From Blautia sp. (GTDB taxonomy: Bacteria > Bacillota > Clostridia > Lachnospirales > Lachnospiraceae): a stretch of 54,241 bases of DNA. The stretch lies in NCBI GenBank assembly GCA_022770365.1, contig JALEHU010000058.1, positions 1 through 54,241 of the forward strand, written 5' to 3'. The position numbers and the translations under genes were made by a program. A model generated the notes under the pieces. It was given only the letters and a program-made list of their open reading frames with translations, searched no databases and was not told where the DNA came from. This document shows, piece after piece, positions 14,976-30,431 of the stretch (positions are counted from its first letter, which is position 1; the number at the start of each line of letters is the position of its first letter).

Positions 14976-15019
14976 TTTACATATTAATTTTCAGAAAAAT
15001 CAAAAGGAGGATCCTACAT

Positions 15020-15655
15020 ATGTCTTTTAGATCCGAAAGTTTTCATCTGGCAGGTGAGACACTTCAGAAAGCATTTGCCAGACATGGAATGGAGGCATGC
15101 TACTGTGCCACCGCAGAAGAAGCAAGAGAAAAAGTGCTTTCCATGATTCCTGAGGGCGCTTCTGTAACCTGGGGTGGAAGTGAATCTATGGTAGAGGCCG
15201 GTGTCATCCAAGCTGTCAGTCAGGGAAATTTCGAAGTTATCGACCGCAAAACTGCCAAAAATCCGGAGGAAGCCCGCGCATTATACGGAAAGATGGTCTG
15301 TGCAGATTATTTTCTCACCAGTACCAATGCCTTTACAAAAGACGGTATGCTCGTGAATATTGATGGTGCCAGCAACCGTGTGGCATGTATCGCCCATGGA
15401 CCGGCTCACGTTATCGTTCTGGCAAGCATGGATAAAATGTGCGCGGATGTGGAAGACGCAGTCAAACGTATCCGCACCCTTGCTTCTCCGCCCAACGCTG
15501 TCCGTGTAGGCGCTCAGACTCCATGTGCCAAAACCGGTATCTGCGGTGACTGCTTAAGCACGGACTGCATCTGCTGCCAGATTCTCGTCACCAGATATTC
15601 CAGAGTTCCGGGAAGGATCAAAGTCGTACTCTGCGGAGAAAAACTTGGATTTTAA
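15020..15655 (+). CDS. LUD-domain protein (LutC-like, lactate utilisation family)
   Basis: A 211-residue protein with the LUD (DUF162) fold seen in LutC/LutB, including the WGGSES segment at 51-56 and the internal LTSTNAFTKDGMLVNIDG motif at about 99-116. Near the C-terminus is a cysteine cluster (Cys169, 175, 178, 183, 185, 186) that could bind a metal or Fe-S cluster. The gene stands alone; lutA and lutB are not adjacent, so lactate oxidation is not proven. AAAGGAGG lies nine bases before ATG 15020. It is convergent with the following minus-strand operon, 17 bp away. Confidence 0.85.
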   Translation: MSFRSESFHLAGETLQKAFARHGMEACYCATAEEAREKVLSMIPEGASVTWGGSESMVEAGVIQAVSQGNFEVIDRKTAKNPEEARALYGKMVCADYFLTSTNAFTKDGMLVNIDGASNRVACIAHGPAHVIVLASMDKMCADVEDAVKRIRTLASPPNAVRVGAQTPCAKTGICGDCLSTDCICCQILVTRYSRVPGRIKVVLCGEKLGF

Positions 15656-15672
15656 ACAGACGAAATGTGTCT

Positions 15673-16692
15673 TCATCCAATGGAAAAATTCATTTTCCGC
15701 ACATTCACCCACATAGCATAAAACATGCCGGCCAGTGCTGCGCAAAAAAATGCTGTTCCGGAACAGACTGCAGTTTCTGTCTCCAGCCCTGTCCATGAAA
15801 CAGAAAAAAACACCAGAAGTTTTTCGGTTTCTTCGCCGATCCTTTTAGACCAGAAAGAAAAATCCGACCATTTTCCCGGTATCCAGGCTGCCGGAATTCG
15901 AAAGCTCCTCGCGATCCAATATCCGGCAGTCAGAAAAAATACAGCACCGCACACCTTCCAGAGTTCTTTTCGTTTTCCGGCAGCCAGCTTCTTCTGTCGT
16001 TTTGTCAATATCAGAAGATCAGACCAGAACATGACAGGGATCAAAAAGACAGCCGTCTCTGCCAGAGTCTTCAAAGCCTGTCCATCTGATATTCTCCCGC
16101 CAAGGCCATATCTTAAGAGAAAATTTTCTGCAGTTTCCTCCTGCTTATCTCTGCCGCAGTCCACAAACAACCGGCTGTATTTCGTCTGCCTGTCATCTGA
16201 ACGGATCAGCACTACGCGCTGCATCCAGTTTACAACACCCCTTACAAAAAAACACCTTCCTAATATTTCCACTTCTCTTCCCATAACATCGGTGCTTCCG
16301 TATAATGCAAGCGCTGATTTCCGGTCAATGATACAACCATCTCTGTCTTCTTCAGAAAACCCCCGGATCCGTGGGTCCAAAAGCGAAGCATTTCCAAGAA
16401 CACTTCCCAAAAACACCTTCATGGTCCTCCCGCCAACAGGATCTTTTGCTGTTATCAATCCAAGGTTATGAAAAAAACACGCATTTCCTCCTTGTTCATT
16501 TTCTTCCTCTGTCTCCAGAATCTTCTGAATTCTGTTTTTTTCCGGCAGATCGTCGGACAGAACCACAGAAACTGCATTCTGTTCAGGGATGTTTCCGCAA
16601 AACCTCAATCCCGCAAAAAAGCAGAGTAACACCAGCACAGGGAAAGTGCATTCCAGGATGATAAAGCGCAGAATCGGATTCTTTTTCTTCAT
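15673..16692 (-). CDS. MacB/FtsX-like membrane protein (diverged exporter permease)
   Basis: A 339-residue protein with the layout of a type VII ABC exporter subunit: one N-terminal helix (FIILECTFPVLVLLCFFAG), an extracytoplasmic domain to about residue 205, then three helices near the C-terminus (AVFLIPVMFWSDLLIL, VCGAVFFLTAGYWIARSF, AFFCAALAGMFYAMWV). The external segment ALALYGSTDVMGREVEILG followed by FFVRGVV resembles the MacB periplasmic core. Overall similarity is weak, so this is a fold-level guess. The start 16692 is chosen for AAAGGGG eight bases upstream. It is the last gene of the permease/adaptor operon; no ATPase gene accompanies it. Confidence 0.5.
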   Translation of the reverse strand: MKKKNPILRFIILECTFPVLVLLCFFAGLRFCGNIPEQNAVSVVLSDDLPEKNRIQKILETEEENEQGGNACFFHNLGLITAKDPVGGRTMKVFLGSVLGNASLLDPRIRGFSEEDRDGCIIDRKSALALYGSTDVMGREVEILGRCFFVRGVVNWMQRVVLIRSDDRQTKYSRLFVDCGRDKQEETAENFLLRYGLGGRISDGQALKTLAETAVFLIPVMFWSDLLILTKRQKKLAAGKRKELWKVCGAVFFLTAGYWIARSFRIPAAWIPGKWSDFSFWSKRIGEETEKLLVFFSVSWTGLETETAVCSGTAFFCAALAGMFYAMWVNVRKMNFSIG

Positions 16693-16706
16693 AATTATGT
16701 CCCCTT

Positions 16707-18047
16707 TCACAACTCACCAAGTCTTACCCGGCTTCCGTCTTCAATTAAACGGTCTGTCTCAATGACTATCTGCTGATCACCTGAGAGAACACCATTTTCC
16801 AGTGCTGCCAGACTCTCATTTTTATCCTCCACTGTCACTTCTACTCTATGTACTACCTGTACATCTCCCAGGACAGAATTCTCTGTATCCAGAACAAATA
16901 CATATTCCCGTCCGCTTTCCCCATACAATGCACTTAACGGAACACATGATGCAAAGGGTCCTTCATCTTTACTGATGGTGAAATCCGCAGATTCTCCCAC
17001 AGACAATGTATTCTCCGGAATCAGAATCGTCAGGATTCTCCTGTCCGGATCCGTTTCATCCTCCCTTATGGATTCAATCTTCCCATTCTCAGTCTCTTTA
17101 CCGCTGCTTCCCCGGATCTGCGCAGCTGCACCAATCTCCGCATATTTAATATCGTCTTTTGAAACAGAAGCTGTCATCCGAAGCTCCCCTCCCAGTTCAT
17201 ATAGAATAACCGGGGCTTCTCCTGAAGTCAGACTTCCTGCTTCGGCAGTCATGGACTTGATCACTCCATCTGTCGGTGCTGTGATTTCCCCTCTCTGTTC
17301 CAGAAGAATCTGAAGTTCCTCAAGCTCCTCCTGTGTATCTTCTATCTGACGCTGTACATTCAACAGAGTTCCGTCGGTTGCTTTTGGAAGATTTGCGTCT
17401 TCCATACTCCTTAAAGCTTCACGCACAGCCTGATTTTTGCTCAGGATCGCCTGGTTCAGTGCTTCCTGTCTGGCACGTATCTCACTTTTCAGCGCCAGTT
17501 CTTCACTTCCGTTCTCTTCACCACTTGTAAACCCGAGAGAATCATAATACTCCGAAAGTCTCTGCTGCGCCTGATCCAGGGCAGTCTGTGCGTTATAAAT
17601 ATCTACATCTCCATTGCTGATTGCTGTATCATAATCTTCATTGGCATGTTTTTTCTCCAGATTTTTCTTTGTCTCATCTGCAGAAACCGCACTTTTCAAG
17701 TCATCTTCTTTCAGGTGCAGTTCTTCAAGCTCCCTTTCTTTTTCCTTTATACTGTCCATCAATGTCTGTTCAGACAGTTTCAAAATCGTCTCACCTTTTT
17801 TTACAGATTGACCGGTCTGAACCATTACCTGTTCCACACGCTGTCCTTCTTTTACAAAAACCGCCCGTTCTCTTGTACCTTCCACTTTTCCAGTCCCGCT
17901 GACACGATGGGTGATTACCTGATTCTGCATGGTTTTCACAGATACCTGCGCAGTATTCATGGAATCCGCCGCACGTGACAGCATCGTCAGCAGCACCATT
18001 GCTCCGAAAAAGAATCCCAGCCATTTCAATATCCTTTCGCGTTTCAT
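16707..18047 (-). CDS. HlyD/MacA-family membrane fusion (adaptor) protein
   Basis: A 446-residue protein with an N-terminal membrane helix (WLGFFFGAMVLLTMLSRA), a lipoyl-like half (VKEGQRVEQVMVQTGQSVKKGETIL), a long coiled-coil hairpin of about 170 residues (from LMDSIKEKERELEEL to EELEELQILLEQRG), the second lipoyl half (EITAPTDGVIKSMTAEAG) and beta-barrel and membrane-proximal domains. Start 18047 (MKRERILK) fits the AAAGGAGTAG site; upstream in-frame sequence overlaps malG-like coding DNA and is rejected. Gene spacing is 5 bp on one side and 14 bp on the other, so it is in one operon with importer-type permeases, which is an unusual partner. Confidence 0.85.
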   Translation of the reverse strand: MKRERILKWLGFFFGAMVLLTMLSRAADSMNTAQVSVKTMQNQVITHRVSGTGKVEGTRERAVFVKEGQRVEQVMVQTGQSVKKGETILKLSEQTLMDSIKEKERELEELHLKEDDLKSAVSADETKKNLEKKHANEDYDTAISNGDVDIYNAQTALDQAQQRLSEYYDSLGFTSGEENGSEELALKSEIRARQEALNQAILSKNQAVREALRSMEDANLPKATDGTLLNVQRQIEDTQEELEELQILLEQRGEITAPTDGVIKSMTAEAGSLTSGEAPVILYELGGELRMTASVSKDDIKYAEIGAAAQIRGSSGKETENGKIESIREDETDPDRRILTILIPENTLSVGESADFTISKDEGPFASCVPLSALYGESGREYVFVLDTENSVLGDVQVVHRVEVTVEDKNESLAALENGVLSGDQQIVIETDRLIEDGSRVRLGEL

Positions 18048-18052
18048 ATTCT

Positions 18053-18889
18053 CTACTCCTTTACTGCTGTGGAAATAATCCCCTGTTCCAGATAATCCTG
18101 TCCTGCCAGAAAAACCAATAGTGCAGGGCACAGCGCCACAACAGACGCTGCAAAAGCAATTCCTGCCTGTTCCATACCAACAGCAGGAAGAAAAAGGGAC
18201 AACGGCCACAATTCTTTTGATTTAAGAAAAGCCATCGGCTGCTCCAGAAGATTCCAGTATTCCAGAAAACCCAGCACAGTCGCGGAAATAATTCCCGGTG
18301 ACCCGAGAGGAAGCCCTATTTTCAGGAAAATCATAATTTCTCCGCCTCCGTCAAGCCTTGCAGATTCAATCAGTGCTTCCGGAATCCCGACAAAAAAACG
18401 ATACATGAGAAACACCGGAAATGTAGAAAATACCGCCGGGAGAATAATTCCTTCCAGTGTATCAATCTGTCCCCATCTGTCCAGCACCAGATAACTGCTC
18501 AGCATCATGACCTGAAAAGGCATCATCATCAGCGCAATATAAATCATAAAAAGCGTTTTGCGAAAGGGAAAATGAAATCTTGCAAATCCCCATGCTGCAG
18601 GGATTCCCACTATCATCTGCCCTGCAAGGACTCCTGCAGCGATTTTCACAGTATTCCACATCATGGCATAAAATCCAGGCGTGTCAATTAATAGTTCCAC
18701 ATACGATTTTAAAGTCGGATACTGAGGAAAGCATTTCCAGGAAGCATATCCGCTCCCGCCTTCCATAACCGGCAGCAGCAGTTCTTTCAGCTCTGTACTT
18801 CCCATCAGGGAACCTGTGATCATAAAAAATACCGGAAAAACACAGAGAAATGCCAAAAGCCATAAGAATACTGACATGATTTTTTTCAA
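18053..18889 (-). CDS. Carbohydrate-type ABC importer permease (MalG/UgpE-like)
   Basis: A 278-residue inner membrane protein with six hydrophobic segments. The cytoplasmic EAA loop that docks the ATPase reads EALIESARLDGGGEIMIFLK, followed by IGLPLGSPG. The start is TTG 18889, chosen because GGAGG (18898-18902), overlapping the stop of the upstream permease gene, lies eight bases before it. In Firmicutes such permeases often share a distant MsmX-type ATPase; none is encoded nearby. Together with the MalF-like protein it should form the translocation pore used by a solute-binding lipoprotein, most likely the one at 20638-22998. Confidence 0.88.
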   Translation of the reverse strand: MKKIMSVFLWLLAFLCVFPVFFMITGSLMGSTELKELLLPVMEGGSGYASWKCFPQYPTLKSYVELLIDTPGFYAMMWNTVKIAAGVLAGQMIVGIPAAWGFARFHFPFRKTLFMIYIALMMMPFQVMMLSSYLVLDRWGQIDTLEGIILPAVFSTFPVFLMYRFFVGIPEALIESARLDGGGEIMIFLKIGLPLGSPGIISATVLGFLEYWNLLEQPMAFLKSKELWPLSLFLPAVGMEQAGIAFAASVVALCPALLVFLAGQDYLEQGIISTAVKE

Positions 18890-18892
18890 GGT

Positions 18893-19738
18893 TTATTCCT
18901 CCTTCGTCCATGTATATCCCAGTACTGCAATCAATAGCATAATCACGATACCGGTCACCACCGCAGCAGCAGCCATTTTATCCAGTGCCAGATCACGATA
19001 CCAGTTATTAAACAGATGCTGCAGCAGATACATTTCTTTCTGGGGATAATCACCTGCCACAAGATATGCCTCACGGTATACTCTGAATCCATTCAGTATG
19101 GATAGAACAACGATCGTAAATAAAGACCCCATCAGATTCGGCAGTGTGATTTTCCAGAAACACATCCATTCCCCTGCTCCGTCCACTTTCGCCGCATCAT
19201 ACAGGGACAGTGGAATTCCCGCAATCCCCGCAGTCCACAGAATTACATCATAGCCCAGATTTCTCCATAGGTAGCTGATCACCAGAACACCAAAGGAAGC
19301 GCCGGTATTCATCCAGTCGATTTCCCGCACAGAAAGCAGAGAAAGAAAATGATTCAGCAGTCCCCGGCTGTGAAATAATACTTTCCACAACACTACAACA
19401 GAAGCTACCGGAATCGCCATTGGCAGAAGAAAAAGACTTTTTTTCAGTTGAAGATGACTTTTTTCTCTGGTAAGGAAAATGGCGGTCATAAGCGACAGCA
19501 GAATCAGAAAAGGAATGCAGACAGCAAAAAAGCGAAGTGTATTTTCTACGGCCAGCTGAAATGCCTGATTTTCAAAAATTGTCCTGTAATTTCTCATGCC
19601 TGTAAATTCTCCGCTAACCGCACCGAAAAAAGAACGGCGGATCACATCCAGATATGGAACCACCCAGAATATACACACCCCCACAAAACTTGGAAGGATG
19701 AACATCAGCCCTTTTACAGCTTCTCTGCGCTTTCTCAT
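18893..19738 (-). CDS. Carbohydrate-type ABC importer permease (MalF/UgpA-like)
   Basis: A 281-residue protein with six predicted helices, beginning with GLMFILPSFVGVCIFWVVPY as in UgpA/LacF-type subunits. The EAA loop reads PLSLYDAAKVDGAGEWMCFW followed by KITLPNLMGS. The start 19738 (MRKRREA) is taken because GGAGG lies five bases before it, inside the longer frame. First gene of the operon with the MalG-like permease, the adaptor and the MacB-like protein, under a promoter that carries the two-half-site operator at 19791-19808. Confidence 0.88.
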   Translation of the reverse strand: MRKRREAVKGLMFILPSFVGVCIFWVVPYLDVIRRSFFGAVSGEFTGMRNYRTIFENQAFQLAVENTLRFFAVCIPFLILLSLMTAIFLTREKSHLQLKKSLFLLPMAIPVASVVVLWKVLFHSRGLLNHFLSLLSVREIDWMNTGASFGVLVISYLWRNLGYDVILWTAGIAGIPLSLYDAAKVDGAGEWMCFWKITLPNLMGSLFTIVVLSILNGFRVYREAYLVAGDYPQKEMYLLQHLFNNWYRDLALDKMAAAAVVTGIVIMLLIAVLGYTWTKEE

Positions 19739-19775
19739 AATTTCCTCCATGAATTTCTGTTTCCTGATACAATGA

Positions 19776-19808
19776 AAAATAGCATAGAAATCTCTAAAAT
19801 CTCTCTAA
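19776..19808 (-). promoter_or_regulatory. Permease operon promoter with two-half-site operator
   Basis: On the minus strand TTAGAGA, 4 bp, TTAGAGA (plus-strand 19802-19808 and 19791-19797; half-sites start 11 bp apart, as for OmpR-type regulators), then 9 bp ending ATGC, then a -10 TATTTT (19781-19776) with the extended TG. The same layout occurs at three other promoters of this locus. Confidence 0.75.
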
Positions 19809-19840
19809 GCTTTGAATACGCCTCTATACTTTCCAGTATC

Positions 19841-19873
19841 TTAGAGGAATTTTAGATGTAGTTACCGTATCAT
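19841..19873 (+). promoter_or_regulatory. Response regulator promoter with the same operator layout
   Basis: TTAGAGG (19841-19847), 4 bp, TTAGATG (19852-19858), 9 bp, TATCAT (19868-19873). The half-sites are weaker matches than at the permease promoter but the spacing is identical. It faces the permease promoter, 33 bp away. An overlapping TATAAT lies at 19874-19879. Confidence 0.6.
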
Positions 19874-19969
19874 TATAATGATGGGGGATCATAAAATATT
19901 TTTCCCCTGGTATCATGATTATGATAAAATGAATTTTGTAAAACAGATAAAAGAAAGGGGATAATTTAC

Positions 19970-20635
19970 TTGAAGATTCTGCTGATTGAAGATGATATGG
20001 AATTATGTGATACACTAAAATACCGTTTGGAAAAAGAAGATTTTACCGTTGATGTCTGCCATGACGGGGAAGAAGGACTTTATTTTATGAAGGAAAGCCT
20101 CTATGATCTTATCATTCTTGACCGCATGCTGCCGTCTATGAACGGTGTTGCTGTACTGAAGGATGCAAGAAAGAGCCACGTATCCAGTCCGGTAATTTTT
20201 CTTACTGCGCTTGGTGAGCTGCAGGATAAAATAACCGGACTTGAATGCGGGGCTGATGATTATATGGTGAAACCCTTTGCATTTGAAGAATTGCTTGCAC
20301 GAATCCGTGCTCTCATGCGCCGTCCCGGCAAATGGGATGACTCTTCACTTCTGCATTTTGAAGATATCTCCTATGACCCGGAAAGCAAACGGCTTTTTAC
20401 GGGAAAGCAGGAATGTACTCTGTCCAGACGCGAAGGAGATCTTCTGGAGATTTTTCTCAGAAATTCCGGGCAGACTCTCACCAGATCTGTTTTGCTTGCC
20501 CGTGTATGGGGACCGGACAGCGATGTGGAAGAAGGGAACCTGGATAACTATATCCATTTTCTGCGCAGAAGATTAAAAACCGTCGGAAGCACTCTGACCA
20601 TAAAAACCATACGCGGAATCGGCTATCAGATCTGA
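19970..20635 (+). CDS. OmpR-family response regulator
   Basis: A 221-residue two-domain regulator. The receiver domain has the acidic pocket Asp8/Asp9, the phosphorylated Asp51 in LIILDRMLPS, Thr79 and Lys101. The C-terminal winged helix (about 125-221) ends with the recognition helix region NYIHFLRRRLKT and the wing IKTIRGIGYQI. The start is TTG 19970 with AAAGGGG upstream. It should bind the paired TTAGAGA half-sites found at four promoters nearby. Its kinase is encoded 2.6 kb downstream on the same strand, with an inverted lipoprotein gene in between whose stop is only 2 bp from this one. Confidence 0.95.
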   Translation: MKILLIEDDMELCDTLKYRLEKEDFTVDVCHDGEEGLYFMKESLYDLIILDRMLPSMNGVAVLKDARKSHVSSPVIFLTALGELQDKITGLECGADDYMVKPFAFEELLARIRALMRRPGKWDDSSLLHFEDISYDPESKRLFTGKQECTLSRREGDLLEIFLRNSGQTLTRSVLLARVWGPDSDVEEGNLDNYIHFLRRRLKTVGSTLTIKTIRGIGYQI

Positions 20636-20637
20636 AC

Positions 20638-22998
20638 TTATTCTGACAGATACAGATTTACTTCCTGCAGTATCGCATTCACTGCTTCCTCCAGGGAAAT
20701 TTCCCCTTTTATGTATCTGGCACCGGAATCTGTAACCGCAGTCAGGATAAACTCATTTACAGAAGATGGCTTGTCAAGTGTTTTTCCCAGTTCCTGGATC
20801 CTGCTGATCACTTCTCTGGACGGCTGGCAGACCTGACCTTCCAACATCTCGCCGGTCGCCTGATTGGAAGATGCCCATGTCCATAATACACTGCCCTCCT
20901 CCTCTTTCATCCAGTAGTCCATATTTTCATAAACGGCTTCATTGACCGGAAGCCCTTTTTCTGTGCCTATGACCTGTCCTTCCACACTGAACAGAAATTC
21001 TACAAATTTCTCTGCAGCCTCTTTCTGGTTTGCTTTTGAACAAATGCCGATTGTCTGCAATGGCAGAAAACGGTTTTCCACCTGTCCGTTCCATATTTTA
21101 TCTGTCAGTAAATCACTTTCTTTTTCAACAGAATCTATCATCGCCAGATCGGATGGTGAATATAATCCTCCCATTGCCAGCAGCTGAGCTTTATCCAGGA
21201 TTTCTCTGCAGCTTACACTGATTCCCAGCTGCGTTACTATCAGATCGTTAATATAATCGTTCTGATCGCCCGTGTTCCGGGATTCCATGATCTCTTCACT
21301 TGTAAGATAAATACGCCTGATTTCTGACAGATACCCGGATACTGCATTTTCATCCAGTGTCCCGTCCTCTTTCATCCATGCATCCGCACACACATCCGCC
21401 ATTTTTCTCAGAAGAATTTCCGGCGCAAAAACCATATAAGTAGGTAATGAATATGGATTATATTCTGTCTGATGTTCCTCGATCACATCCGCTAGAGTAG
21501 AAAGATCCGTAATTTTTTCGATGTCTTCTTTCCAGCCCATGATCATGGGGATTGCAAATTTCAGCGGCATGTAATATATTGTGCCATCATCATCGATATA
21601 GGGATCCATAATATTTTTCAGGATTCCATCTGATTCATTGATTTTTCCGATAATGCCGCTGATATCCTCCAGCATTCCTTTTTCAACATAAATATCAGCA
21701 GGTACTCCATCAAGAATCAGAATGTCCGGTCCTTTTCCTGCCATGATCTCCGTATTCAGTGTCTTCAGTGCGTCCGTGGAGGTTACTGCATCTTCTCCTG
21801 TCATTCCTGTCTCCAGTTCAAGGTAAATGTCCGGATATTTTTTCTGGAAAAGAGCGACAGCCTGGCGCATAAAACTGTTTTCTGTAAGAGAGTAAACTTT
21901 CAGTTCCGTATCAGGAACAGTCGGTGTATCTTTTGAGTATTCATAACGTAAAACCTTATCTGTACCATCACTATCATTTTTCACAGCCAGATAGAATCTT
22001 CCCTTATCATCCTGTTCCATATCCACCAGTCCTGTATCAGGGGAACTGATGGAATTCAGGCTTCCATCAATGATCTGTTCCACAACACTCCCGCCGAGCG
22101 CATAACGGTACATTCCATCACTGTCCACATAAAACAGACTGTCTTCCTCATCCCCCTGAAGAAACAGAACCGGAAAGACGCTGGTACTGGTAATTATCAG
22201 ATTCTCTTCGTCTGACATGATCTGCCTGCTCAAAGTTTCCGCGCCTTCCACGGGTTTTCCGGTGTCGACATCATAATAGTGAATACTATCGTCAAGGACG
22301 GCAGCAATGATGTGATCCGCAATGCCGAAATAATTCACAAAATTTCCTTCCTCATAAACCCGTATAACACGCTCATCTTCCGGATCAATCTCGGCAATTC
22401 CATTACCGGGAGTGTTAAGCAGAATTGTCCCGTTCTCTGTAAATTCACTGTTCGTAATATAAGCCTGTCCGCATACACTGTCCAGTTGTATTTCTCTTGC
22501 TTTTCCCTTTGCGTCGATATAATAGTAATGCAGTTTGCAGTCATTCGGATTTTCTTCGGAATACTCTGTTACCATCACAAAAATACTTCCGTCATAAGAT
22601 AACTGTGGAAATGAAACGGAAAACTGATCCGTATCCAGTTTTAACAGGTCTGTCAGGGAAACTGCTTCTCCCCAGGTGTCTCCTTCATCATGAGAATCCG
22701 CATACATTGGTTCGTAATCAGAATCCAGATAGCAGAGCCGCAAGGTTCCATCATCAAGAAATTTAAGAGCACTTACCATGCTGAAATTATCCGGCAGATT
22801 CAGATCCGATTCCAGATACCGTCCCATTCCTTTCTCCGTATCTTCATTTTGTGTATTTGCCGTCTCTGTTTCTTCTTCATAACTGTCACACGTATTTTTC
22901 TTCTCACCACAGGCTGTCACCAAGAAACTGCTGCCCGCAGCCAGGGTTAAAGCCGCTGTCAGAGCAATTCTTTTTTTCCATTTTCCATATAAGTTCAT
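20638..22998 (-). CDS. Lipoprotein joining a beta-propeller-like region to an extracellular solute-binding domain
   Basis: A 786-residue lipoprotein. The signal peptide ends at the lipobox VTAC with Cys30. Residues about 60-360 are rich in beta strands and carry one clear Asp-box, SHDEGDTW (102-109), as in sialidase-type propellers, plus repeated strand patterns such as SLFYVDSDGMYRYALGG. From about residue 364 (TELKVYSLTENSFMRQAVAL) a family-1 type solute-binding domain begins, with FQKKYPDIYLELE, an AGKGPDILILDG segment, and a GLPVNEAVY region near the end. It is likely the binding subunit of the MalFG-like permeases, and might also present a signal to the adjacent kinase. The double architecture is uncommon. 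Confidence 0.85.
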   Translation of the reverse strand: MNLYGKWKKRIALTAALTLAAGSSFLVTACGEKKNTCDSYEEETETANTQNEDTEKGMGRYLESDLNLPDNFSMVSALKFLDDGTLRLCYLDSDYEPMYADSHDEGDTWGEAVSLTDLLKLDTDQFSVSFPQLSYDGSIFVMVTEYSEENPNDCKLHYYYIDAKGKAREIQLDSVCGQAYITNSEFTENGTILLNTPGNGIAEIDPEDERVIRVYEEGNFVNYFGIADHIIAAVLDDSIHYYDVDTGKPVEGAETLSRQIMSDEENLIITSTSVFPVLFLQGDEEDSLFYVDSDGMYRYALGGSVVEQIIDGSLNSISSPDTGLVDMEQDDKGRFYLAVKNDSDGTDKVLRYEYSKDTPTVPDTELKVYSLTENSFMRQAVALFQKKYPDIYLELETGMTGEDAVTSTDALKTLNTEIMAGKGPDILILDGVPADIYVEKGMLEDISGIIGKINESDGILKNIMDPYIDDDGTIYYMPLKFAIPMIMGWKEDIEKITDLSTLADVIEEHQTEYNPYSLPTYMVFAPEILLRKMADVCADAWMKEDGTLDENAVSGYLSEIRRIYLTSEEIMESRNTGDQNDYINDLIVTQLGISVSCREILDKAQLLAMGGLYSPSDLAMIDSVEKESDLLTDKIWNGQVENRFLPLQTIGICSKANQKEAAEKFVEFLFSVEGQVIGTEKGLPVNEAVYENMDYWMKEEEGSVLWTWASSNQATGEMLEGQVCQPSREVISRIQELGKTLDKPSSVNEFILTAVTDSGARYIKGEISLEEAVNAILQEVNLYLSE

Positions 22999-23027
22999 TG
23001 AACAACCTCCATTTTTATTTTTTCAGC

Positions 23028-23081
23028 GGTTCGGCATTTTCACTGATAGACAAACAGTTCTGCTGTATTTCCTGCCGAACC
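23028..23081 (-). promoter_or_regulatory. Inverted repeat in the leader of the solute-binding lipoprotein gene
   Basis: GGTTCGGCA (23028-23036) and TGCCGAACC (23073-23081) can pair over 9 bp around a 36-nt loop in the transcript, between promoter and start codon. A regulatory or stabilising role is possible. Confidence 0.4.
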
Positions 23082-23097
23082 ATTCCTGATTTTCTTT

Positions 23098-23130
23098 ATG
23101 GTAACATCCTTGTCTCTAAAATTTCTCTAA
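23098..23130 (-). promoter_or_regulatory. Solute-binding lipoprotein promoter with two-half-site operator
   Basis: On the minus strand TTAGAGA, 4 bp, TTAGAGA (plus-strand 23124-23130 and 23113-23119), then 9 bp ending ATGT, then TACCAT (23103-23098). Half-site sequence, 11-bp period, 9-bp gap and extended TG match the permease promoter exactly. Confidence 0.75.
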
Positions 23131-23133
23131 CTC

Positions 23134-23166
23134 TTAGAGCTGTTTTACAGAATCCTGTGTTATGAT
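23134..23166 (+). promoter_or_regulatory. Histidine kinase promoter with the same operator layout
   Basis: TTAGAGC (23134-23140), 4 bp, TTACAGA (23145-23151), 9 bp ending GTGT, TATGAT (23161-23166). Divergent from the lipoprotein promoter, whose operator begins 3 bp away. Confidence 0.65.
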
Positions 23167-23177
23167 AAAGTATCAGA

Positions 23178-23201
23178 GGGGGCAAAATACCGTTTGCCCC
23201 C
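23178..23201 (+). promoter_or_regulatory. GC-rich hairpin in the kinase leader
   Basis: GGGGGCAAA (23178-23186) pairs with TTTGCCCCC (23193-23201), loop of 6 nt, directly after the expected transcription start. It has no U-run, so it is more likely a stabiliser of the 5' end than a terminator. Confidence 0.45.
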
Positions 23202-23247
23202 ATCATCATAACATCTGATTATTAGCAAACAGCAAAAGGAGAAAGAG

Positions 23248-24525
23248 ATGTTCCAAAAATTGCACAGACAAATGACCGTTTTTTCCACATTGATCACAGG
23301 TTCCATTCTCATTGCCATGACCCTTTCCTGTCTCTTCATTGCAGAATCCGGCACAAAAGAAAATAGTTTTGTCACCTTCCATAATAATTTCAGTTCCTGT
23401 CTCACTTATCTCGGCGGAGAAACAGTTCTTTCTCACCAGTGGATCCTTCAGGTAAGCAAAACCTATGGAATTGAAATGGAAGTAAAAGATAATGGAAATC
23501 CCCTGTTTTTCGATAAACTGAATCCAAGTCCCCGGCTTCAGGAAATGTTTCAAAAAGCTGCCGAAATTTCCAGAAATACGTATGCTCTGGATCTGGACAA
23601 CCTGAAAAGTGTTTCCGTCCTGACCAAAAGCACTGTATTTAAAATGGACAAATTCTACGCAGGCACCGCACTGGTTCCCCGGGAGGAAGGCGTCCTGAGT
23701 GTGATCATTCTTTATCCTCTGGAAGTTCTGAATCGTCAGCTTATGGAACAAAGGCTTGATTTTGGCTGTGCTGTACTCATTGCTGTTCTTGCCCTGGCAG
23801 TCTTCTCCTGGTTCTTTACCCGGAAAATGATTCTTCCGCTGGAAAAAGGACGTAAAGAACAGACCGAGTTTATCGCCGCTGCTTCTCACGAGCTCCGTTC
23901 TCCTCTTGCAGTCATCCAGTCCAGCATCTCTGCCATGGAAAAAGCCGCACCGGATGAAACTGCTCATTTTACTGAAATCATAAAAAAAGAAAGCAGCCGT
24001 ATGACGAGACTCATTAATGACATGCTGTGTCTTGCCAATGCAGACAATCACACCTGGAACCTCAGAAGTGCCCCATGTGAACTGGATACTCTCCTTCTGG
24101 AAACCTATGAAAAATATGAACCTCTTGCATATCAGAAATGCCTTCATCTTGACATTTCACTGCCGGATGAACCGGTTTCTCCCTGCATCTGCGATGCTGC
24201 AAGAATCACCCAGGTACTTGGCATTCTTCTGGACAATGCGATGAGCTACGTTCCTGATCAGGGTAAAATCTCACTTTCTCTTGGGCAGGATGACCATTCT
24301 TTTATACTTACTGTAAAAGACAATGGTCCCGGGATTCCGGATGATTCCAAAGAAGCTGTTTTTCGCAGATTTTACCGTGGGGATTCTTCCCGGAATGATA
24401 AACAGCATTTCGGACTTGGACTTTGCATCGCCCGGGAGATCGTACTGCTCCACAGAGGCACTGTCTGTATTGAAGATGCTCCGGGAGGCGGTACCGTGTT
24501 TACCGTCCGACTTCCCAGAACATGA
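23248..24525 (+). CDS. Sensor histidine kinase
   Basis: A 425-residue membrane kinase. Two helices (about 10-32 and 174-191) enclose an extracytoplasmic sensor of about 140 residues. The H-box ASHELRSPLAVIQSS has the phosphorylated His214; the N-box is LGILLDNAM, and the ATP lid motifs are VKDNGPGIPDD, FRRFYRGDSS and GLGLCIAREI. No HAMP domain is evident. AAAGGAG lies 6 bp before ATG 23248. It should phosphorylate the response regulator at 19970. Its promoter carries the same operator as its partner genes, so it is probably under feedback control. Confidence 0.93.
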   Translation: MFQKLHRQMTVFSTLITGSILIAMTLSCLFIAESGTKENSFVTFHNNFSSCLTYLGGETVLSHQWILQVSKTYGIEMEVKDNGNPLFFDKLNPSPRLQEMFQKAAEISRNTYALDLDNLKSVSVLTKSTVFKMDKFYAGTALVPREEGVLSVIILYPLEVLNRQLMEQRLDFGCAVLIAVLALAVFSWFFTRKMILPLEKGRKEQTEFIAAASHELRSPLAVIQSSISAMEKAAPDETAHFTEIIKKESSRMTRLINDMLCLANADNHTWNLRSAPCELDTLLLETYEKYEPLAYQKCLHLDISLPDEPVSPCICDAARITQVLGILLDNAMSYVPDQGKISLSLGQDDHSFILTVKDNGPGIPDDSKEAVFRRFYRGDSSRNDKQHFGLGLCIAREIVLLHRGTVCIEDAPGGGTVFTVRLPRT

Positions 24526-24550
24526 CACTAGATACATCCCGAAACGGAAA

Positions 24551-24586
24551 AAGAGGATTCTGCTTGCTTCCCGGCAAAATCCTCTT
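24551..24586. terminator. Bidirectional terminator between the kinase gene and the MacB-like operon
   Basis: AAGAGGATT (24551-24559) pairs with AATCCTCTT (24578-24586), with further pairing TGC/GCA inside. A-rich and T-rich flanks on both sides suit the convergent genes. Confidence 0.7.
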
Positions 24587-24685
24587 AAAATCTCAATAAT
24601 ATTCTCTGATATCCTTCTGTCTCCGAAAGTGCTAATCCTGACAGAAACCCGTCTATCTCCAAAATATCTGCTCTGATTATCTGTC

Positions 24686-25948
24686 TTACTCACTTCTCAG
24701 AGCATCGATCGGATTCAGATTTGCTGCTTTAACAGAAGGAAGCAGTCCAAAGATCACACCGATCAGCATGGAAAATACCACCGATCCGATAATTGCCGGA
24801 ACACTGATTGCAGTTGGCGATCCTGACAATCGCGAAACTACTTTGGAAAGGGCAATTCCGGACGCCACACCAATGATACCGCCGATGCTTGTCAGCACAG
24901 AAGCCTCTGTCAAAAACTGGAAAAGGATCGTTTTTTTTCTAGCTCCGATAGCCTTCTTCAGACCAATCTCTCTAGTTCGTTCGGTGACCGAAACCAGCAT
25001 AATATTCATTACGCCGATTCCACCCACAAGAAGGGAAATACTTGCAATCCAGATCAGCTGCTGATTGGTACTCTCACTGAGTTTCTGCAGATTCTTCACA
25101 CGTTCCATCACATCATCCGCCCTGTATTCAAAGGAAAAACTGCTGTCTGTATCTGAACCTGAAATATTCCGGTTCAGTATTTTGGCAACTGCATTGCCTG
25201 CTGTACTCATACTATCTGTGGAATCAGCACGGATAATCGCATCCTCCGGTTCATCAAACTTAAATACCATCGGCCAGCATCTTGAAGGAATCATCACTGT
25301 CCCCATCACTGTCTGATAGTACTCATAGAATTCCTGAATATTATCAATATTCGGAAGATAATCGTCACTCTGACGAACAACACCTACTACTGTAAACGGC
25401 TCTGAACCAATCTCAATGATTTTCCCTACAGCTTCTTCTCCGGGGAAAAGATTTTCTGCTGCATTTGAATCAATCAGAACAACTTTATGGAATTCATCAT
25501 AATCCTTCTGGACAAACTCCCTGCCTGACTGAATTTCATAACCGCAGGTATCAAGAAAATTCTGATCGATCCCGTATACTTTTCCTCCCTGAAAACTGCT
25601 ATTCTGATAATAAATATTGCTGGAATAGGAACGGCTGTAGAAAAATGTGGCATTTTCCACATTTTCCAGTTCCAGTACTTCCGCCTTCTGATCTGCTGTC
25701 AGAAGCGGCGGCGTCCCGCCCATTCCATAATCACTGTCATAAGTCGTATCACCATAGTACAGACTGATATTCACTGTATTATTTCCGGCTCCGATCAGAT
25801 CCTCTTTGATCTGTTCACTGGTTCCCTTGATCGTAGACACAATTGCAATAATAGATGCAATTCCAATGATAATACCAAGCATGGTCAGGAATGACCGCAT
25901 CTTATGAGACCAGATGCCCTGAAAAGATAATCGTATATTTTCTATCAT
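24686..25948 (-). CDS. MacB/FtsX-type ABC exporter permease
   Basis: A 420-residue permease with the type VII layout: N-terminal helix (SFLTMLGIIIGIASIIAIVS), a MacB core ectodomain (about 45-285, containing VVLIDSNAAENLFPGEEAVG and FTVVGVV), and three C-terminal helices in an FtsX domain with the segment VSVTERTREIGLKKAIGARK. It forms the exporter with the ATPase at 27972-28652. Start ATG 25948. Last gene of a four-gene operon, 14 bp after the adaptor gene. The substrate is unknown; macrolides, peptides and lipoproteins are all possible in this family. Confidence 0.93.
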   Translation of the reverse strand: MIENIRLSFQGIWSHKMRSFLTMLGIIIGIASIIAIVSTIKGTSEQIKEDLIGAGNNTVNISLYYGDTTYDSDYGMGGTPPLLTADQKAEVLELENVENATFFYSRSYSSNIYYQNSSFQGGKVYGIDQNFLDTCGYEIQSGREFVQKDYDEFHKVVLIDSNAAENLFPGEEAVGKIIEIGSEPFTVVGVVRQSDDYLPNIDNIQEFYEYYQTVMGTVMIPSRCWPMVFKFDEPEDAIIRADSTDSMSTAGNAVAKILNRNISGSDTDSSFSFEYRADDVMERVKNLQKLSESTNQQLIWIASISLLVGGIGVMNIMLVSVTERTREIGLKKAIGARKKTILFQFLTEASVLTSIGGIIGVASGIALSKVVSRLSGSPTAISVPAIIGSVVFSMLIGVIFGLLPSVKAANLNPIDALRSE

Positions 25949-25962
25949 GTAATCCCGCCTCC

Positions 25963-27975
25963 TTAGTATCCATACAAATCTTCCAGCGTGCCTTCTTTTG
26001 TCTTAACGCCTTCTTTAATGTCTTTGCCATACGGAAATGCAATTCTGTCATCCCGGGTAATTCCGCCCTTCACAAGTACGCTGTATCCGCCGTTGACATT
26101 TCCCCCTACGCTCAGGGCCTGCTTTTTTAGGACTCCATTTTCGTCTTTATAAACGTAACTTACTCCATTTTCAGAAAGTACGAACGCTTTATCCAATACA
26201 AGGCTGCCTTCACTGGAGGTCTGGCTCTTTAAAGTAACTGTCAGCCAGTCCTGATCGGAAAGCTTGATGCTTTTATCTGTTACAATCGCGCTATAGGTAT
26301 AATAGGATGCATTTGGATTGCCATCTCCGTAATAATAATATCCGTTCCCTGATGATACAGGATAATCAGACACATCCACAACTTCTGCTTCAAAGCTGCC
26401 ATTTTCATAACTCTGGCAGTTCAGTATGGTTCCTTCCTCCATCTCATCCAGCATCAATTCACTGACATTTCCCTTAACGTAATATCCATCTTTGCTTTTC
26501 ACGACAAGAAATGCTTTTTCTGAAGAATTACCGGTCAGAACATCACCCACATAAGAGACTGTTCCGTCAATCTTACTGTAGACCACCTGTTTCTGCACTT
26601 TCTTCTCCAGTTTTGAAATATTGATCTCACTTTCCTGGATATCAAGTTTCAGGCCGGCAATTTCATTCTGCTTCTGTTTGATTGCTTCGGCTCTTGTAAG
26701 AGTCGTGGTATTTTCATCTGTTCCGGAACTGTCTCCGGGATTCTCCGGTTCCGGATCATCCTGTGTATAGGTGCTGGCATCATCCACAGTAAGCTCCATC
26801 TCGGCCATAGCATCCACCGGAGTTTCCAAAAGACTTCCGTCAATCAGGTAATACCCGATGCAGGATTCTTTACGATCTTCAAAATTGGTAATCGTATTAC
26901 GGTTATGGAATTCGATCTGGTACCAGTATCCGTCTTCGTTTAAGACCTTAGTCCCATCTTCACTGAATCCTGCCATCTTATTCAGAAATTCTCCGGTGAG
27001 AGAAATTTTACCTGTCGCAAAGCTGCACAGGAATATATAAGGTTCCACTTCACTTCCGCGTCCTGTATAGGGAACAGAATCCCCGTCCAGCTTATCATAA
27101 AACACAGGATTACCATCATGGAACTGTGTATCCCCCTGTGTCGGATATGGATCGTAAATATCTACATCTTCATCAAAAACCGGTGCCGGTGTAGGCGTTG
27201 ATACCGGCGGATCTATTTCACCTGATATAAACCCGTCTCCATCTCCGGTTCCGGAACTGCTTCCCGAACTGAATTCACTATCCGAATTTCCACCGGATAC
27301 CGATGAACCTTCTGAGATATCCATTTCTTCAGAAAGCATAGAATCCGTATCAGAATCTGCGCCTTCAGAAAGCATTGTCCCATTATAGGAATCTTCAATT
27401 TCCGGTATATCCGAAAAAGCATCCCCTATCGCAGCAGCGAGCAGCAGCGGACTCATCGATGCTGCAAGATAAGAACCGGAAGTTCCCACGGCAGCCGATG
27501 CTTCGCTGTCTATATTATTTAAATCGCTGGTGACATTCTCAATGCTCTTTGGAACACTTTCATCTTCCTCTATAACAGGACCGCCATTCTGGAGACTTTT
27601 CAATCTGTTTACAGCCTTATTCAGATCCTGTTCCTGCTGCTGTTTCTGTAGTTTTGCAATATTCAGTTCCATTTCCACAAGAGTCATATCGAAGGTGATG
27701 AGCACATCACCCTTTTTAACGCTGTCGCCTTTCTGTACCGGAACATCCTTAATGATCATGTCGTTATCCACATTCACCTTCTGTGAAACGCTGGTAGTCA
27801 CAGTACCATCCAGATAGGTATCCTGGGAATAATAATCGCTCGCAAGGCTTCCTACATTATACACCATAACCTCTGTTTCATTGGACTTCCGTATATATAC
27901 AGCACCGGCAGAAGCGGCTCCCGCCATCAGAGCAGCCACCACCACACCGGCAATTATCTTTTTGACTCTGCTCAT
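25963..27975 (-). CDS. HlyD/MacA-type adaptor with a large domain inserted in the coiled-coil hairpin
   Basis: A 670-residue adaptor, far longer than the usual 350-450. After the N-terminal helix (IIAGVVVAALMAGAASAGAV) and the first lipoyl half (VPVQKGDSVKKGDVLITFD) comes the first coiled-coil helix (about 85-135). Instead of a tight turn there is an insert of roughly 280 residues: an acidic, Ser/Gly-rich stretch, a proline linker (PPVSTPTPAPVFDEDVD), and a folded-looking segment (SEVEPYIFLCSFATGKISLT and onward to CIGYYLIDGSLLE). The second helix (AIKQKQNEIAGLKLDIQESE) and second lipoyl half (VYSKIDGTVSYVGDVL) follow. The start overlaps the ATPase stop by 4 bp. Confidence 0.87.
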   Translation of the reverse strand: MSRVKKIIAGVVVAALMAGAASAGAVYIRKSNETEVMVYNVGSLASDYYSQDTYLDGTVTTSVSQKVNVDNDMIIKDVPVQKGDSVKKGDVLITFDMTLVEMELNIAKLQKQQQEQDLNKAVNRLKSLQNGGPVIEEDESVPKSIENVTSDLNNIDSEASAAVGTSGSYLAASMSPLLLAAAIGDAFSDIPEIEDSYNGTMLSEGADSDTDSMLSEEMDISEGSSVSGGNSDSEFSSGSSSGTGDGDGFISGEIDPPVSTPTPAPVFDEDVDIYDPYPTQGDTQFHDGNPVFYDKLDGDSVPYTGRGSEVEPYIFLCSFATGKISLTGEFLNKMAGFSEDGTKVLNEDGYWYQIEFHNRNTITNFEDRKESCIGYYLIDGSLLETPVDAMAEMELTVDDASTYTQDDPEPENPGDSSGTDENTTTLTRAEAIKQKQNEIAGLKLDIQESEINISKLEKKVQKQVVYSKIDGTVSYVGDVLTGNSSEKAFLVVKSKDGYYVKGNVSELMLDEMEEGTILNCQSYENGSFEAEVVDVSDYPVSSGNGYYYYGDGNPNASYYTYSAIVTDKSIKLSDQDWLTVTLKSQTSSEGSLVLDKAFVLSENGVSYVYKDENGVLKKQALSVGGNVNGGYSVLVKGGITRDDRIAFPYGKDIKEGVKTKEGTLEDLYGY

Positions 27976-28652
27976 GACATCACCTCTTTCTCACGCAGCT
28001 CTCCGTCACGTATCGTGACTACCCGCTTTGCATGAGCTGCGATCTCAGGATCATGAGTGATCATCAGCACTGACACGCCTTCTTCGTTCAATGTTCTGAA
28101 AAGCTCCATAACCTGCGCTCCTGACTTACTGTCCAGAGCTCCTGTAGGCTCATCTGCCAGAAGAAGCCTCGGGTTGTTTACAATTGCCCTGGCGATCGCT
28201 ACTCTCTGCATCTGGCCGCCCGAAAGCTGATTCGGCCGGAAATCAACCCTGTCGGAAAGTCCTACTCTTTCCAGGGCCTTCAGCGCTTTTGCACGACGTT
28301 CCTTTTTGGGAACCTTTGCATAATGAAGAGGCATCTCTACATTTGAAAGAGCCGTCTGTCTCGGCAGAAGGTGAAAGCTCTGAAATACAAACCCGATCTT
28401 GTGAAGCCGGATATCAGACATTTCATTTTCAGAGCAGGAACGGATATCCTGTCCATCCAGCAGGAAACTGCCTTCTGTTGCCTGATCAAGGCATCCGATA
28501 ATGTTCATCAATGTTGTCTTACCGGATCCGGAAGGTCCCATAATGGCAACATATTCTCCCTCTTCCATGGAAAAATCCACATTTTTTAATACCGGAACGG
28601 TCATCTTTCCCTGCTGGTAATTTTTGTAAATTCCCTTCAGTTCCAAAATCAT
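27972..28652 (-). CDS. ABC exporter ATPase (MacB/LolD type)
   Basis: A 226-residue ATPase. Walker A GPSGSGKTT at 39-47, signature LSGGQMQR at 143-150, Walker B LLLADEP at 164-170 and the H-loop MITHDPE. The D-loop context GALDSKSG and the length are typical of the LolD/MacB/FtsE group that powers mechanotransmission by type VII permeases. It lies between two adaptor genes with 4-bp overlaps at both ends. Confidence 0.95.
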   Translation of the reverse strand: MILELKGIYKNYQQGKMTVPVLKNVDFSMEEGEYVAIMGPSGSGKTTLMNIIGCLDQATEGSFLLDGQDIRSCSENEMSDIRLHKIGFVFQSFHLLPRQTALSNVEMPLHYAKVPKKERRAKALKALERVGLSDRVDFRPNQLSGGQMQRVAIARAIVNNPRLLLADEPTGALDSKSGAQVMELFRTLNEEGVSVLMITHDPEIAAHAKRVVTIRDGELREKEVMS

Positions 28653-30154: not shown

Positions 30155-30368
30155 AATTTCCTCCAATTCATTTCTTCATTTTTGAAACACGCTGCAATGA
30201 AGCAATTTCTTTATTGAAAACCATATTTTATTATGATTTATATCTGCGTTACATCATAACATATCATAGCAGATAACATGTAAAAAGAAAAGTCTTCTCA
30301 GGAATCTATTCATATTTCACAAAAAATTCACCGTTATTTTATGAAATCCATACATTTTTAAGGCTTTT

Positions 30369-30397
30369 TTGACTTTTTATACGATATCTGGTAAAAT
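30369..30397 (+). promoter_or_regulatory. Promoter of the duplicated-domain lipoprotein gene
   Basis: TTGACT (30369-30374), 17 bp, TAAAAT (30392-30397) with a TG one base upstream. On the other strand, near 30270, an extended -10 TGCTATGAT may serve the exporter operon. Confidence 0.75.
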
Positions 30398-30431
30398 AAA
30401 TGGAAATCACTAGGAAAGGAAAAAGACCCGT

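What the first reader, a model, noticed from the sequence alone, without database searches (positions are those of the whole stretch)
19776..23166. Four promoters with one identical operator geometry
At four promoters the sequence is a half-site, 4 bp, half-site, 9 bp, then a -10 box. Permease operon and lipoprotein gene have perfect TTAGAGA pairs; the response regulator has TTAGAGG/TTAGATG and the kinase has TTAGAGC/TTACAGA. Half-site starts are 11 bp apart in all four, and three of the four have TG before the -10. They form two back-to-back divergent pairs. Paired half-sites replacing the -35 are typical for OmpR-type activators. This predicts that the regulator controls its own gene, its kinase and both transport units.
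Basis: partly seen in the sequence, partly recalled or inferred. Interest (0 to 1): 0.85.

Follow-up and report, generated by a model that had tools for sequence, protein, structure and literature searches.

The report
Conserved promoter code of one two-component regulator
Four promoters in this gut bacterium carry the same paired docking sequence, most likely for one signal-activated regulator; the pattern is kept in dozens of relatives wherever the same genes start a unit, and the regulator's own promoter is the weak link. The layout is a textbook kind, but no description of this regulator, its code and its target genes was found.

Summary
All four promoters have two TTAGAG-type half-sites 11 bp apart, 9 bp before a -10 box; three have TG before the -10, none has a -35. 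In 80 homologous loci plus the window (Lachnospiraceae and some relatives) the motif precedes 158 of 187 genes that start a unit and 2 of 83 that do not. Sites follow rearrangements: the kinase has one when it leads a unit (18 of 21), none when co-transcribed (0 of 54). Permease operons away from the regulator keep perfect sites (L118, L120). A position-blind scan of 249 other family genomes gave 41 sites, 31 before the same kinds of genes. The recognition helix differs from the 14 other readable ones in this genome. Best reading: a PhoB/PhoP-type class II activator with a dedicated local regulon. Correction: autoregulation is the weakest claim. The regulator's own site scores 14.8 bits against 31-34, lacks TG, and is gone in the sister group L001, L002, L004. 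New: transport promoters carry stronger sites (46 of 72 perfect) than regulator/kinase promoters (11 of 86). Binding itself is untested.

The parts
19776..19808 (-). Operator-promoter of the permease operon: TTAGAGA-N4-TTAGAGA-N9-TATTTT with TG before the -10
   Evidence: 34.1 bits with a matrix that excludes the window; conserved in L001-L004
19841..19873 (+). Degenerate operator-promoter of the response regulator gene: TTAGAGG-N4-TTAGATG-N9-TATCAT, no TG; TATAAT at 19874-19879
   Evidence: 14.8 bits; absent in L001, L002, L004
23098..23130 (-). Operator-promoter of the lipoprotein gene: TTAGAGA-N4-TTAGAGA-N9-TACCAT with TG
   Evidence: 31.2 bits
23134..23166 (+). Operator-promoter of the kinase gene: TTAGAGC-N4-TTACAGA-N9-TATGAT with TG; abuts the lipoprotein operator (3 bp between them)
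   Evidence: 32.5 bits
19970..20635 (+). Response regulator, OmpR/PhoB type (receiver + winged helix), TTG start; recognition helix EEGNLDNYIHFLRRRLK
   Evidence: Pfam PF00072 and PF00486; alignment A3
23248..24525 (+). Membrane histidine kinase (HisKA + HATPase_c)
   Evidence: membrane location judged from the sequence
20638..22998 (-). Lipoprotein: N-terminal all-beta, sialidase-like (Asp-box) propeller part and C-terminal sugar-type solute-binding domain
   Evidence: Pfam SBP_bac_8/SBP_bac_1; profile matches to sialidases and solute-binding proteins in the PDB; model with beta strands to about residue 372 and a mixed domain after it, pLDDT 84.9 (no fold search run)
18893..19750 (-). ABC permease of MalF/UgpA type, first gene of the permease operon
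   Evidence: PF00528; NCBIfam matches below cut-off
18053..18889 (-). ABC permease of MalG/UgpE type
   Evidence: PF00528; NCBIfam matches below cut-off
16707..18047 (-). HlyD/MacA-like adaptor protein
   Evidence: PF13437; RND_mfp below cut-off
15673..16659 (-). Membrane protein with the MacB/YknZ/LolE permease fold, no Pfam match
   Evidence: pLDDT 87.5; Foldseek best 5xu1_M, E 2.1e-8

Best explanation
The four sites are class II operators for the response regulator encoded at 19970-20635. The kinase at 23248-24525 senses an unknown envelope or extracellular signal and phosphorylates the regulator; a head-to-tail dimer binds the two TTAGAGA repeats on one DNA face in place of the -35 element and recruits RNA polymerase to an extended -10 (TGnTAnnnT). 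It thereby switches on the permease operon, the lipoprotein and its kinase, and perhaps weakly its own gene. Shown here: sequence, geometry, conservation, dependence on operon structure, retention at unlinked copies, the distinctive recognition helix. Inferred: binding, phosphorylation dependence, activation rather than repression, and the signal. In the searched assembly the regulon is the local cluster only. Site strength is graded over the family: transport units strongest, regulator and kinase weaker.
For: (1) 158 of 187 unit-leading genes have the motif against 2 of 83 non-leading ones (Fisher 3e-41, loci not independent); kinase 18/21 when leading, 0/54 when not; MalF-type permease 24/27 against 1/27. 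(2) Both non-leading exceptions (L017 lipoprotein gene, L060 permease gene) have the site between the two genes, so they are probably internal promoters. (3) Geometry: exact TTAGAG pairs lie 11 bp apart in 58 of 187 lead regions, next offset 22 in 4; TGnTAnnnT lies 24 (101 cases) or 13 (59 cases) bp from a half-site start; 0 pairs in 107,204 bases of coding control. (4) 18 loci, the window included, have four separate units: 13 have four sites, 4 have three, 1 has two. (5) Permease operons about 90 kb from the regulator (L118) or on another contig, well inside it (L120), and a lipoprotein gene apart from the cluster (L117) have perfect sites. (6) Position-blind scan of 250 family genomes, own included: 44 sites (3 own) against 8 for the reversed control; of the 41 others 15 precede a regulator (3 of them 43-44% cousins), 14 the lipoprotein, 2 the permease, 10 something else. 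(7) The helix GN(L/V/I)D(N/S)YI(H/S/Y)FLR(R/K)RL is kept in 18 aligned regulators down to 44% identity; of the other 16 PF00486 places in this genome, 14 could be read at the helix and all 14 differ (one gave no helix, one no alignment); in the 15 that could be scored the best site within 300 bp upstream has 4.2 bits. (8) The PhoB box is two 11-bp repeats of 7 conserved + 4 variable bases (PMC2648988 passage); the Salmonella PhoP box is hexamer-N5-hexamer, about 12 nt before the -10 in class II promoters (PMC3335776 passages).
Against: No binding or expression data exist here. 29 of 187 leading genes lack a site at <=2 mismatches, 4 of them with under 100 bp of upstream sequence. The regulator's own site is degenerate in the window and absent in L001, L002, L004 and L008 (L005 has only 129 bp upstream). 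Related motifs occur before D,D-carboxypeptidase genes in genomes where no close regulator was found, so the motif is not read by this regulator alone in every genome. A regulator 43-44% identical has the same kind of site. Raw genome counts do not exceed the reversed-pattern control. The TA and T of the -10 were used to break ties when sites were chosen (TG was not). Activation is inferred from position only.
Confidence: 0.87

Rival explanations
1. The sites are read by a different OmpR-type regulator of the genome, and the local regulator binds something else.
For: Motif-like sites occur before D,D-carboxypeptidase genes in genomes where no close relative of this regulator was found (G001, G005, G016; also G007, whose assembly carries operators of the cluster and may lack the regulator by a gap), so other proteins can read a related sequence. 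Another locus of this genome with a different regulator (L204) reaches 12.4 bits somewhere in the stretch.
Against: The motif travels with this regulator's cluster in the homologous loci and with its unlinked genes, and the recognition helix is co-conserved and unlike the others read in this genome.
Confidence: 0.06
2. The regulator acts as a repressor from these sites, blocking the -35/-10 region until the signal comes.
For: A dimer on the -35 region could also exclude polymerase (inference).
Against: No -35 hexamer is present at any of the four; the extended -10 and fixed 9-bp phase are what a class II activator needs (PMC3335776 passages); where the operator is lost at the regulator gene (L002, L004) the -10 reads TGnTATAAT, as expected for a switch to constitutive use.
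Confidence: 0.06
3. The regulator's own site in the window is a fossil: the regulator gene is expressed constitutively, for example from TATAAT at 19874-19879, and only the other three promoters are controlled. This is compatible with the main explanation for those three.
For: 14.8 bits against 31-34, no TG, absent in the sister group L001/L002/L004; shuffled windows come close to its score (best of 40: 14.9).
Against: The distal half-site is intact and the 11-bp and 9-bp spacings are kept; no shuffled upstream region reached 10 bits.
Confidence: 0.5
4. Chance or shared ancestry of intergenic DNA without function.
For: Loci are related by descent; raw genome counts do not exceed the reversed control.
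Against: Flanks are near background while half-sites are fixed, and sites appear or vanish with operon structure and follow unlinked genes.
Confidence: 0.01

Closest known systems
E. coli PhoB and the pho box
   Same: Two direct repeats of 11 bp, each 7 conserved + 4 less conserved bases (PMC2648988 passage); box replaces the -35 (PMC3413638 passages); PhoB is the top NCBIfam match but below its cut-off (194.3 of 296.2 bits).
   Different: Repeat TTAGAGA instead of CTGTCAT; different recognition helix (PhoB's is recalled); no phosphate genes seen; mostly an extended -10 (TG in 24/24 permease, 18/18 kinase, 35/48 lipoprotein, 49/68 regulator sites).
Salmonella PhoP box, architecture I (class II)
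   Same: Hexamer-N5-hexamer direct repeat about one helical turn before the -10, overlapping the -35 (PMC3335776 passages).
   Different: Hexamer (T/G)GTTTA there; PhoP uses five architectures, while here the one geometry dominates the sites found.
C. difficile RR_1586 and CmrR
   Same: OmpR-family regulators of an anaerobic Firmicute with sites defined by experiment (PMC6222199, PMC12548384, passages).
   Different: CmrR uses an inverted repeat ACAAT-N8-ATTGT; the letters of the RR_1586 motif were not in the passages seen.
Regulator-kinase pair beside ABC exporter genes (L128 and kin; E. faecium plasmid NZ_CP040873, L219)
   Same: 43-44% identical regulator with a related recognition helix (L128) and TTAGAG-N5-TTACAG with an extended -10 before the regulator (L128; L142, L143, L150; L219).
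   Different: Neighbours are FtsX-like and MutE/EpiE-like ABC genes (below cut-off; annotation), not the MalF/MalG/HlyD/lipoprotein set.

Membership tests
OmpR/PhoB family response regulators | Receiver domain plus Trans_reg_C winged helix | tested here: met
   PF00072 2.1e-26 and PF00486 1e-18
OmpR/PhoB family response regulators | Phosphorylation residues (D8/D9, D51, T79, K101) | tested here: met
   Invariant in 18 aligned regulators; the role of each position is recalled
OmpR/PhoB family response regulators | Direct-repeat operator with 10-11 bp register | tested here: met
   (as sequence; binding not tested)
Class II activation (box replaces -35) | Box overlaps the -35, one turn before the -10, no -35 hexamer | tested here: met
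   compared with PMC3335776 passages
Class II activation (box replaces -35) | Contact with sigma and real activation of transcription | not testable with these tools
   needs in vitro transcription
PhoB proper | NCBIfam PhoB cut-off and pho-box consensus | tested here: not met
   194.3 of 296.2 bits; TTAGAGA instead of CTGTCAT
Autoregulated two-component system | Operator before the regulator gene | tested here: inconclusive
   Degenerate site in the window, absent in the sister group, present in 68 of 81 regulators

The most novel reading that the evidence does not exclude
A clade of gut-bacterial regulators with the helix GN(L/V/I)D(N/S)YI(H/S/Y)FLR(R/K)RL shares one operator code, TTAGAGA-N4-TTAGAGA-N6-TGnTAnnnT, and uses it for an envelope-guarding module of unusual make-up: a propeller-plus-solute-binding lipoprotein, MalF/MalG-type permeases with no ATPase in the operon, and MacA/MacB-like parts. 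Site strength is graded by gene role, and in this sub-clade the regulator's own feedback is being lost while its outputs stay fixed. Cousins of the code may reach lantibiotic-type exporters and peptidoglycan carboxypeptidases.
Probability: 0.3. Interest if true: 0.6.

Novelty: new member of a known kind. Interest (0 to 1): 0.45.

Why it matters
It gives a readable operator code, with the likely protein that reads it and a set of targets, for a regulator family found across Lachnospiraceae and some relatives, where few such pairs are known to me. The code can be scanned in any genome to find targets, and the natural rearrangements (kinase inside or outside the regulator's operon, unlinked permease operons, lost feedback site) make the wiring directly testable. 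It also gives a handle on a transport cluster whose function is unknown.

Tried and rejected
Rejected: C65:693 in the same genome (one mismatch) is inside a reading frame with no -10 at the right distance. The MacB-type operon at 30166-24686 next to the kinase has no site at its start (30166(-) scores -3.9). The relaxed pattern TTASAN6TTASA is not specific (31 hits against 48 for the reversed control). Reversed upstream regions were a bad null (21 of 183 reach 10 bits) because TTAGAGATT is nearly mirror-symmetric; I replaced it by dinucleotide shuffles. A first automatic classification by longest ORFs (145 of 191 leading, 9 of 159 non-leading) was too crude and was replaced by homology-based starts. 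No Rfam family reaches its gathering score in 15000-31000.

Unlinked copies: I first took L119 (G020:C136) as an unlinked permease operon. Its site lies at base 54 of the contig, and the regulator of the same genome lies at base 130 of another contig, so a contig break is as likely; I no longer count it.

Carboxypeptidase lead, not assigned to this regulator: several out-of-locus sites precede peptidoglycan genes (S11 carboxypeptidases L122 and L130, VanY L126, YkuD L127). Among 29 scored upstream regions of L130-type carboxypeptidase relatives (30 fetched, one too short) 11 reach 15 bits, but not the one of this genome (L187, -10.8), and 4 of the 11 are in genomes where no close regulator was found.

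Literature: searches (and 48, 54 on PhoB) brought no paper that I recognised as naming this motif or cluster. I saw listings only for most (20 of 64, 20 of 170, 11 of 11, 12 of 16, 12 of 144) and passages of PMC2648988, PMC3335776, PMC3413638, PMC12548384, PMC6222199. So 'undescribed' means not found in these searches. A plasmid search with the regulator gave only matches under 60% identity among the 5000 records kept.

Corrections to my own notes: the first checkpoint note says the reversed-control hits have 3 mismatches only; no call shows that, and one search lists 5 control hits with <=2 for this genome.
Full report
WHAT IS THERE. The window is contig C120 of a 2,995,866-base assembly, 85% complete; its nearest relatives by the regulator are Blautia and other Lachnospiraceae assemblies. 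Between 15.6 and 24.5 kb lie a response regulator and a kinase on the + strand, and a lipoprotein gene and a four-gene permease operon on the - strand. This makes two divergent intergenic regions. Each of the four units starts with the same element: a 7-base half-site, 4 bp, a second half-site, 9 bp, a -10 box. The coordinates and the details of the finding are correct, including TG before three of the four -10 boxes. No -35 hexamer is present at any of them.

IS IT MORE THAN CHANCE. Loose pattern counts say little: at three mismatches the window has 6 hits against 5.5 expected, and in the whole genome the tool's reversed-pattern control gives more hits than the motif (48 to 31; 24 to 7; 465 to 59; 121 to 35). 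What stands out is rank. The only two perfect TTAGAG-N5-TTAGAG pairs of the assembly are here, as are two of three one-mismatch pairs; the third is inside a reading frame. A matrix built from relatives without the window puts the four sites first, at 34.1, 32.5, 31.2 and 14.8 bits, next best 4.4. Of 1830 shuffles of 183 upstream regions none reached 10 bits; the best of 40 shuffled windows reached 14.9 with the full matrix, where the regulator's site has 17.5.

CONSERVATION. 80 loci encoding a relative of the regulator (the best 80 of 306 found) and the window were compared. 270 regulator, kinase, lipoprotein and MalF-type permease genes were scored; 160 have a pair with at most two mismatches within about 400 bp upstream. 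The logo is TTTAGAGA-WWnT-TTAGAGA-WT-n4-TG-n-TATAAT, with flanks near background. TG was not used to choose the sites (126 of 158 have it); TA and T of the -10 were used only to break ties. Exact half-sites lie 11 bp apart in 58 of 187 lead regions and in at most 4 for any other spacing; the extended -10 lies at 24 and 13 bp from half-site starts in 101 and 59 cases; 107,204 bases of coding control hold no pair. In some relatives four half-sites follow each other at 11-bp steps (L037, L055, L060). In the window and L001-L004 half-site bases are 97-100% identical at the permease and lipoprotein promoters and 87% at the kinase, against 46-51% for the rest.

NATURAL EXPERIMENTS. The site follows the transcription unit, not the gene. 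When the kinase leads its own unit it has a site in 18 of 21 loci; when it sits behind the regulator, in 0 of 54. The MalF-type permease has one in 24 of 27 when leading and 1 of 27 when behind another gene of the set. Of 18 loci with four separate units, the window included, 13 have four sites, 4 have three and 1 has two. In genomes where the permease operon lies about 90 kb away (L118) or well inside another contig (L120), or where a lipoprotein gene lies apart (L117), the gene still has a perfect site; L119 looked similar but sits at a contig end and is not counted. A scan of 250 genomes of the family (own included) that did not use the regulator's position gave 44 sites, 3 of them the window's own, against 8 for the control; of the 41 others 15 precede a regulator, 14 the lipoprotein gene, 2 the permease gene, and 10 something else. 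Two of these ten (L132, L148) are small-lipoprotein genes beside a regulator of this family.

WHICH PROTEIN READS IT. The regulator is of OmpR/PhoB type with intact phosphorylation residues. Its recognition helix, EEGNLDNYIHFLRRRLK, is almost unchanged in regulators down to 44-51% identity that also carry the site. A search for PF00486 in the genome gave 17 places; of the 16 other than this one, 14 could be read at the helix and all 14 differ, and in the 15 that could be scored the best site within 300 bp upstream has 4.2 bits. This is association, not proof of binding.

The regulator's own site is the poorest: 14.8 bits, no TG, a second half-site TTAGATG. In L001, L002 and L004, which form the sister group of the window in a four-protein tree, the site is gone while the other three are kept, and in L002 and L004 the -10 reads TGnTATAAT. 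L008 also lacks it. Since 68 of 81 regulators have the site, it is most likely ancestral and being lost in this sub-clade. The kinase's site remains. Over all loci transport promoters are closer to consensus than regulator and kinase promoters: 46 of 72 against 11 of 86 perfect (loci share descent, so its p-value is only a guide).

MECHANISM. The layout is that of a class II activator of the PhoB/PhoP type: the pho box is two 11-bp repeats of 7 + 4 bases (PMC2648988, passage), and the Salmonella PhoP box is hexamer-N5-hexamer about 12 nt before the -10, overlapping the -35 (PMC3335776, passages). So a phosphorylated dimer should bind in place of the -35 and recruit polymerase to an extended -10. 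Binding, activation and the signal are inferred.

WHAT IT CONTROLS. The lipoprotein joins a sialidase-like, all-beta part to a sugar-type solute-binding domain. The permease operon has two MalF/MalG-type permeases, a HlyD/MacA-like adaptor and a protein without Pfam match that folds like MacB, YknZ and LolE permeases. No ATPase gene was seen in this operon. It is thus a mixture of importer-like and exporter-like parts, whose function is unknown; a role in sensing or removing an envelope-active compound is my guess, fed by cousins of the regulator that sit beside lantibiotic-type ABC genes and carry the same kind of site.

VERDICT. A real, well conserved regulatory code of a known kind. The regulator, operator and target set are a new example as far as the searches show.

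Noticed in passing
23178-23201: Perfect hairpin GGGGGCAAA-N6-TTTGCCCCC in the kinase leader (z -3.56), absent in L001-L004; the assembly has one other copy of this kind of stem, at C60:30161. No T-run follows; function unknown.
   Followed up: partly
L122, L126, L127, L130, L163, L165, L171: TTAGAG/TTACAG-type composite sites precede peptidoglycan genes (S11 and VanY carboxypeptidases, YkuD) in several genomes, also where no close regulator was found; 11 of 29 scored upstream regions of L130-type relatives reach 15 bits.
   Followed up: partly
15673-16659: 328-aa protein without Pfam match has the MacB/YknZ permease fold but sits behind MalF/MalG-type permeases.
   Followed up: yes
L128, L142, L143, L150, L162, L219: A 43-44% identical regulator with a near-identical promoter site in several genomes, and a copy with the same site on an E. 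faecium plasmid beside transposases: possibly a mobile module with ABC exporters.
   Followed up: partly
L144, L160: Strong sites before small, probably secreted proteins that look alike (DUF4367 weakly in L144, nothing in L160) without the known gene set nearby.
   Followed up: no
L037, L046, L055, L057, L060: Arrays of four half-sites, some with mismatches, at exact 11-bp steps before the lipoprotein or permease gene.
   Followed up: no
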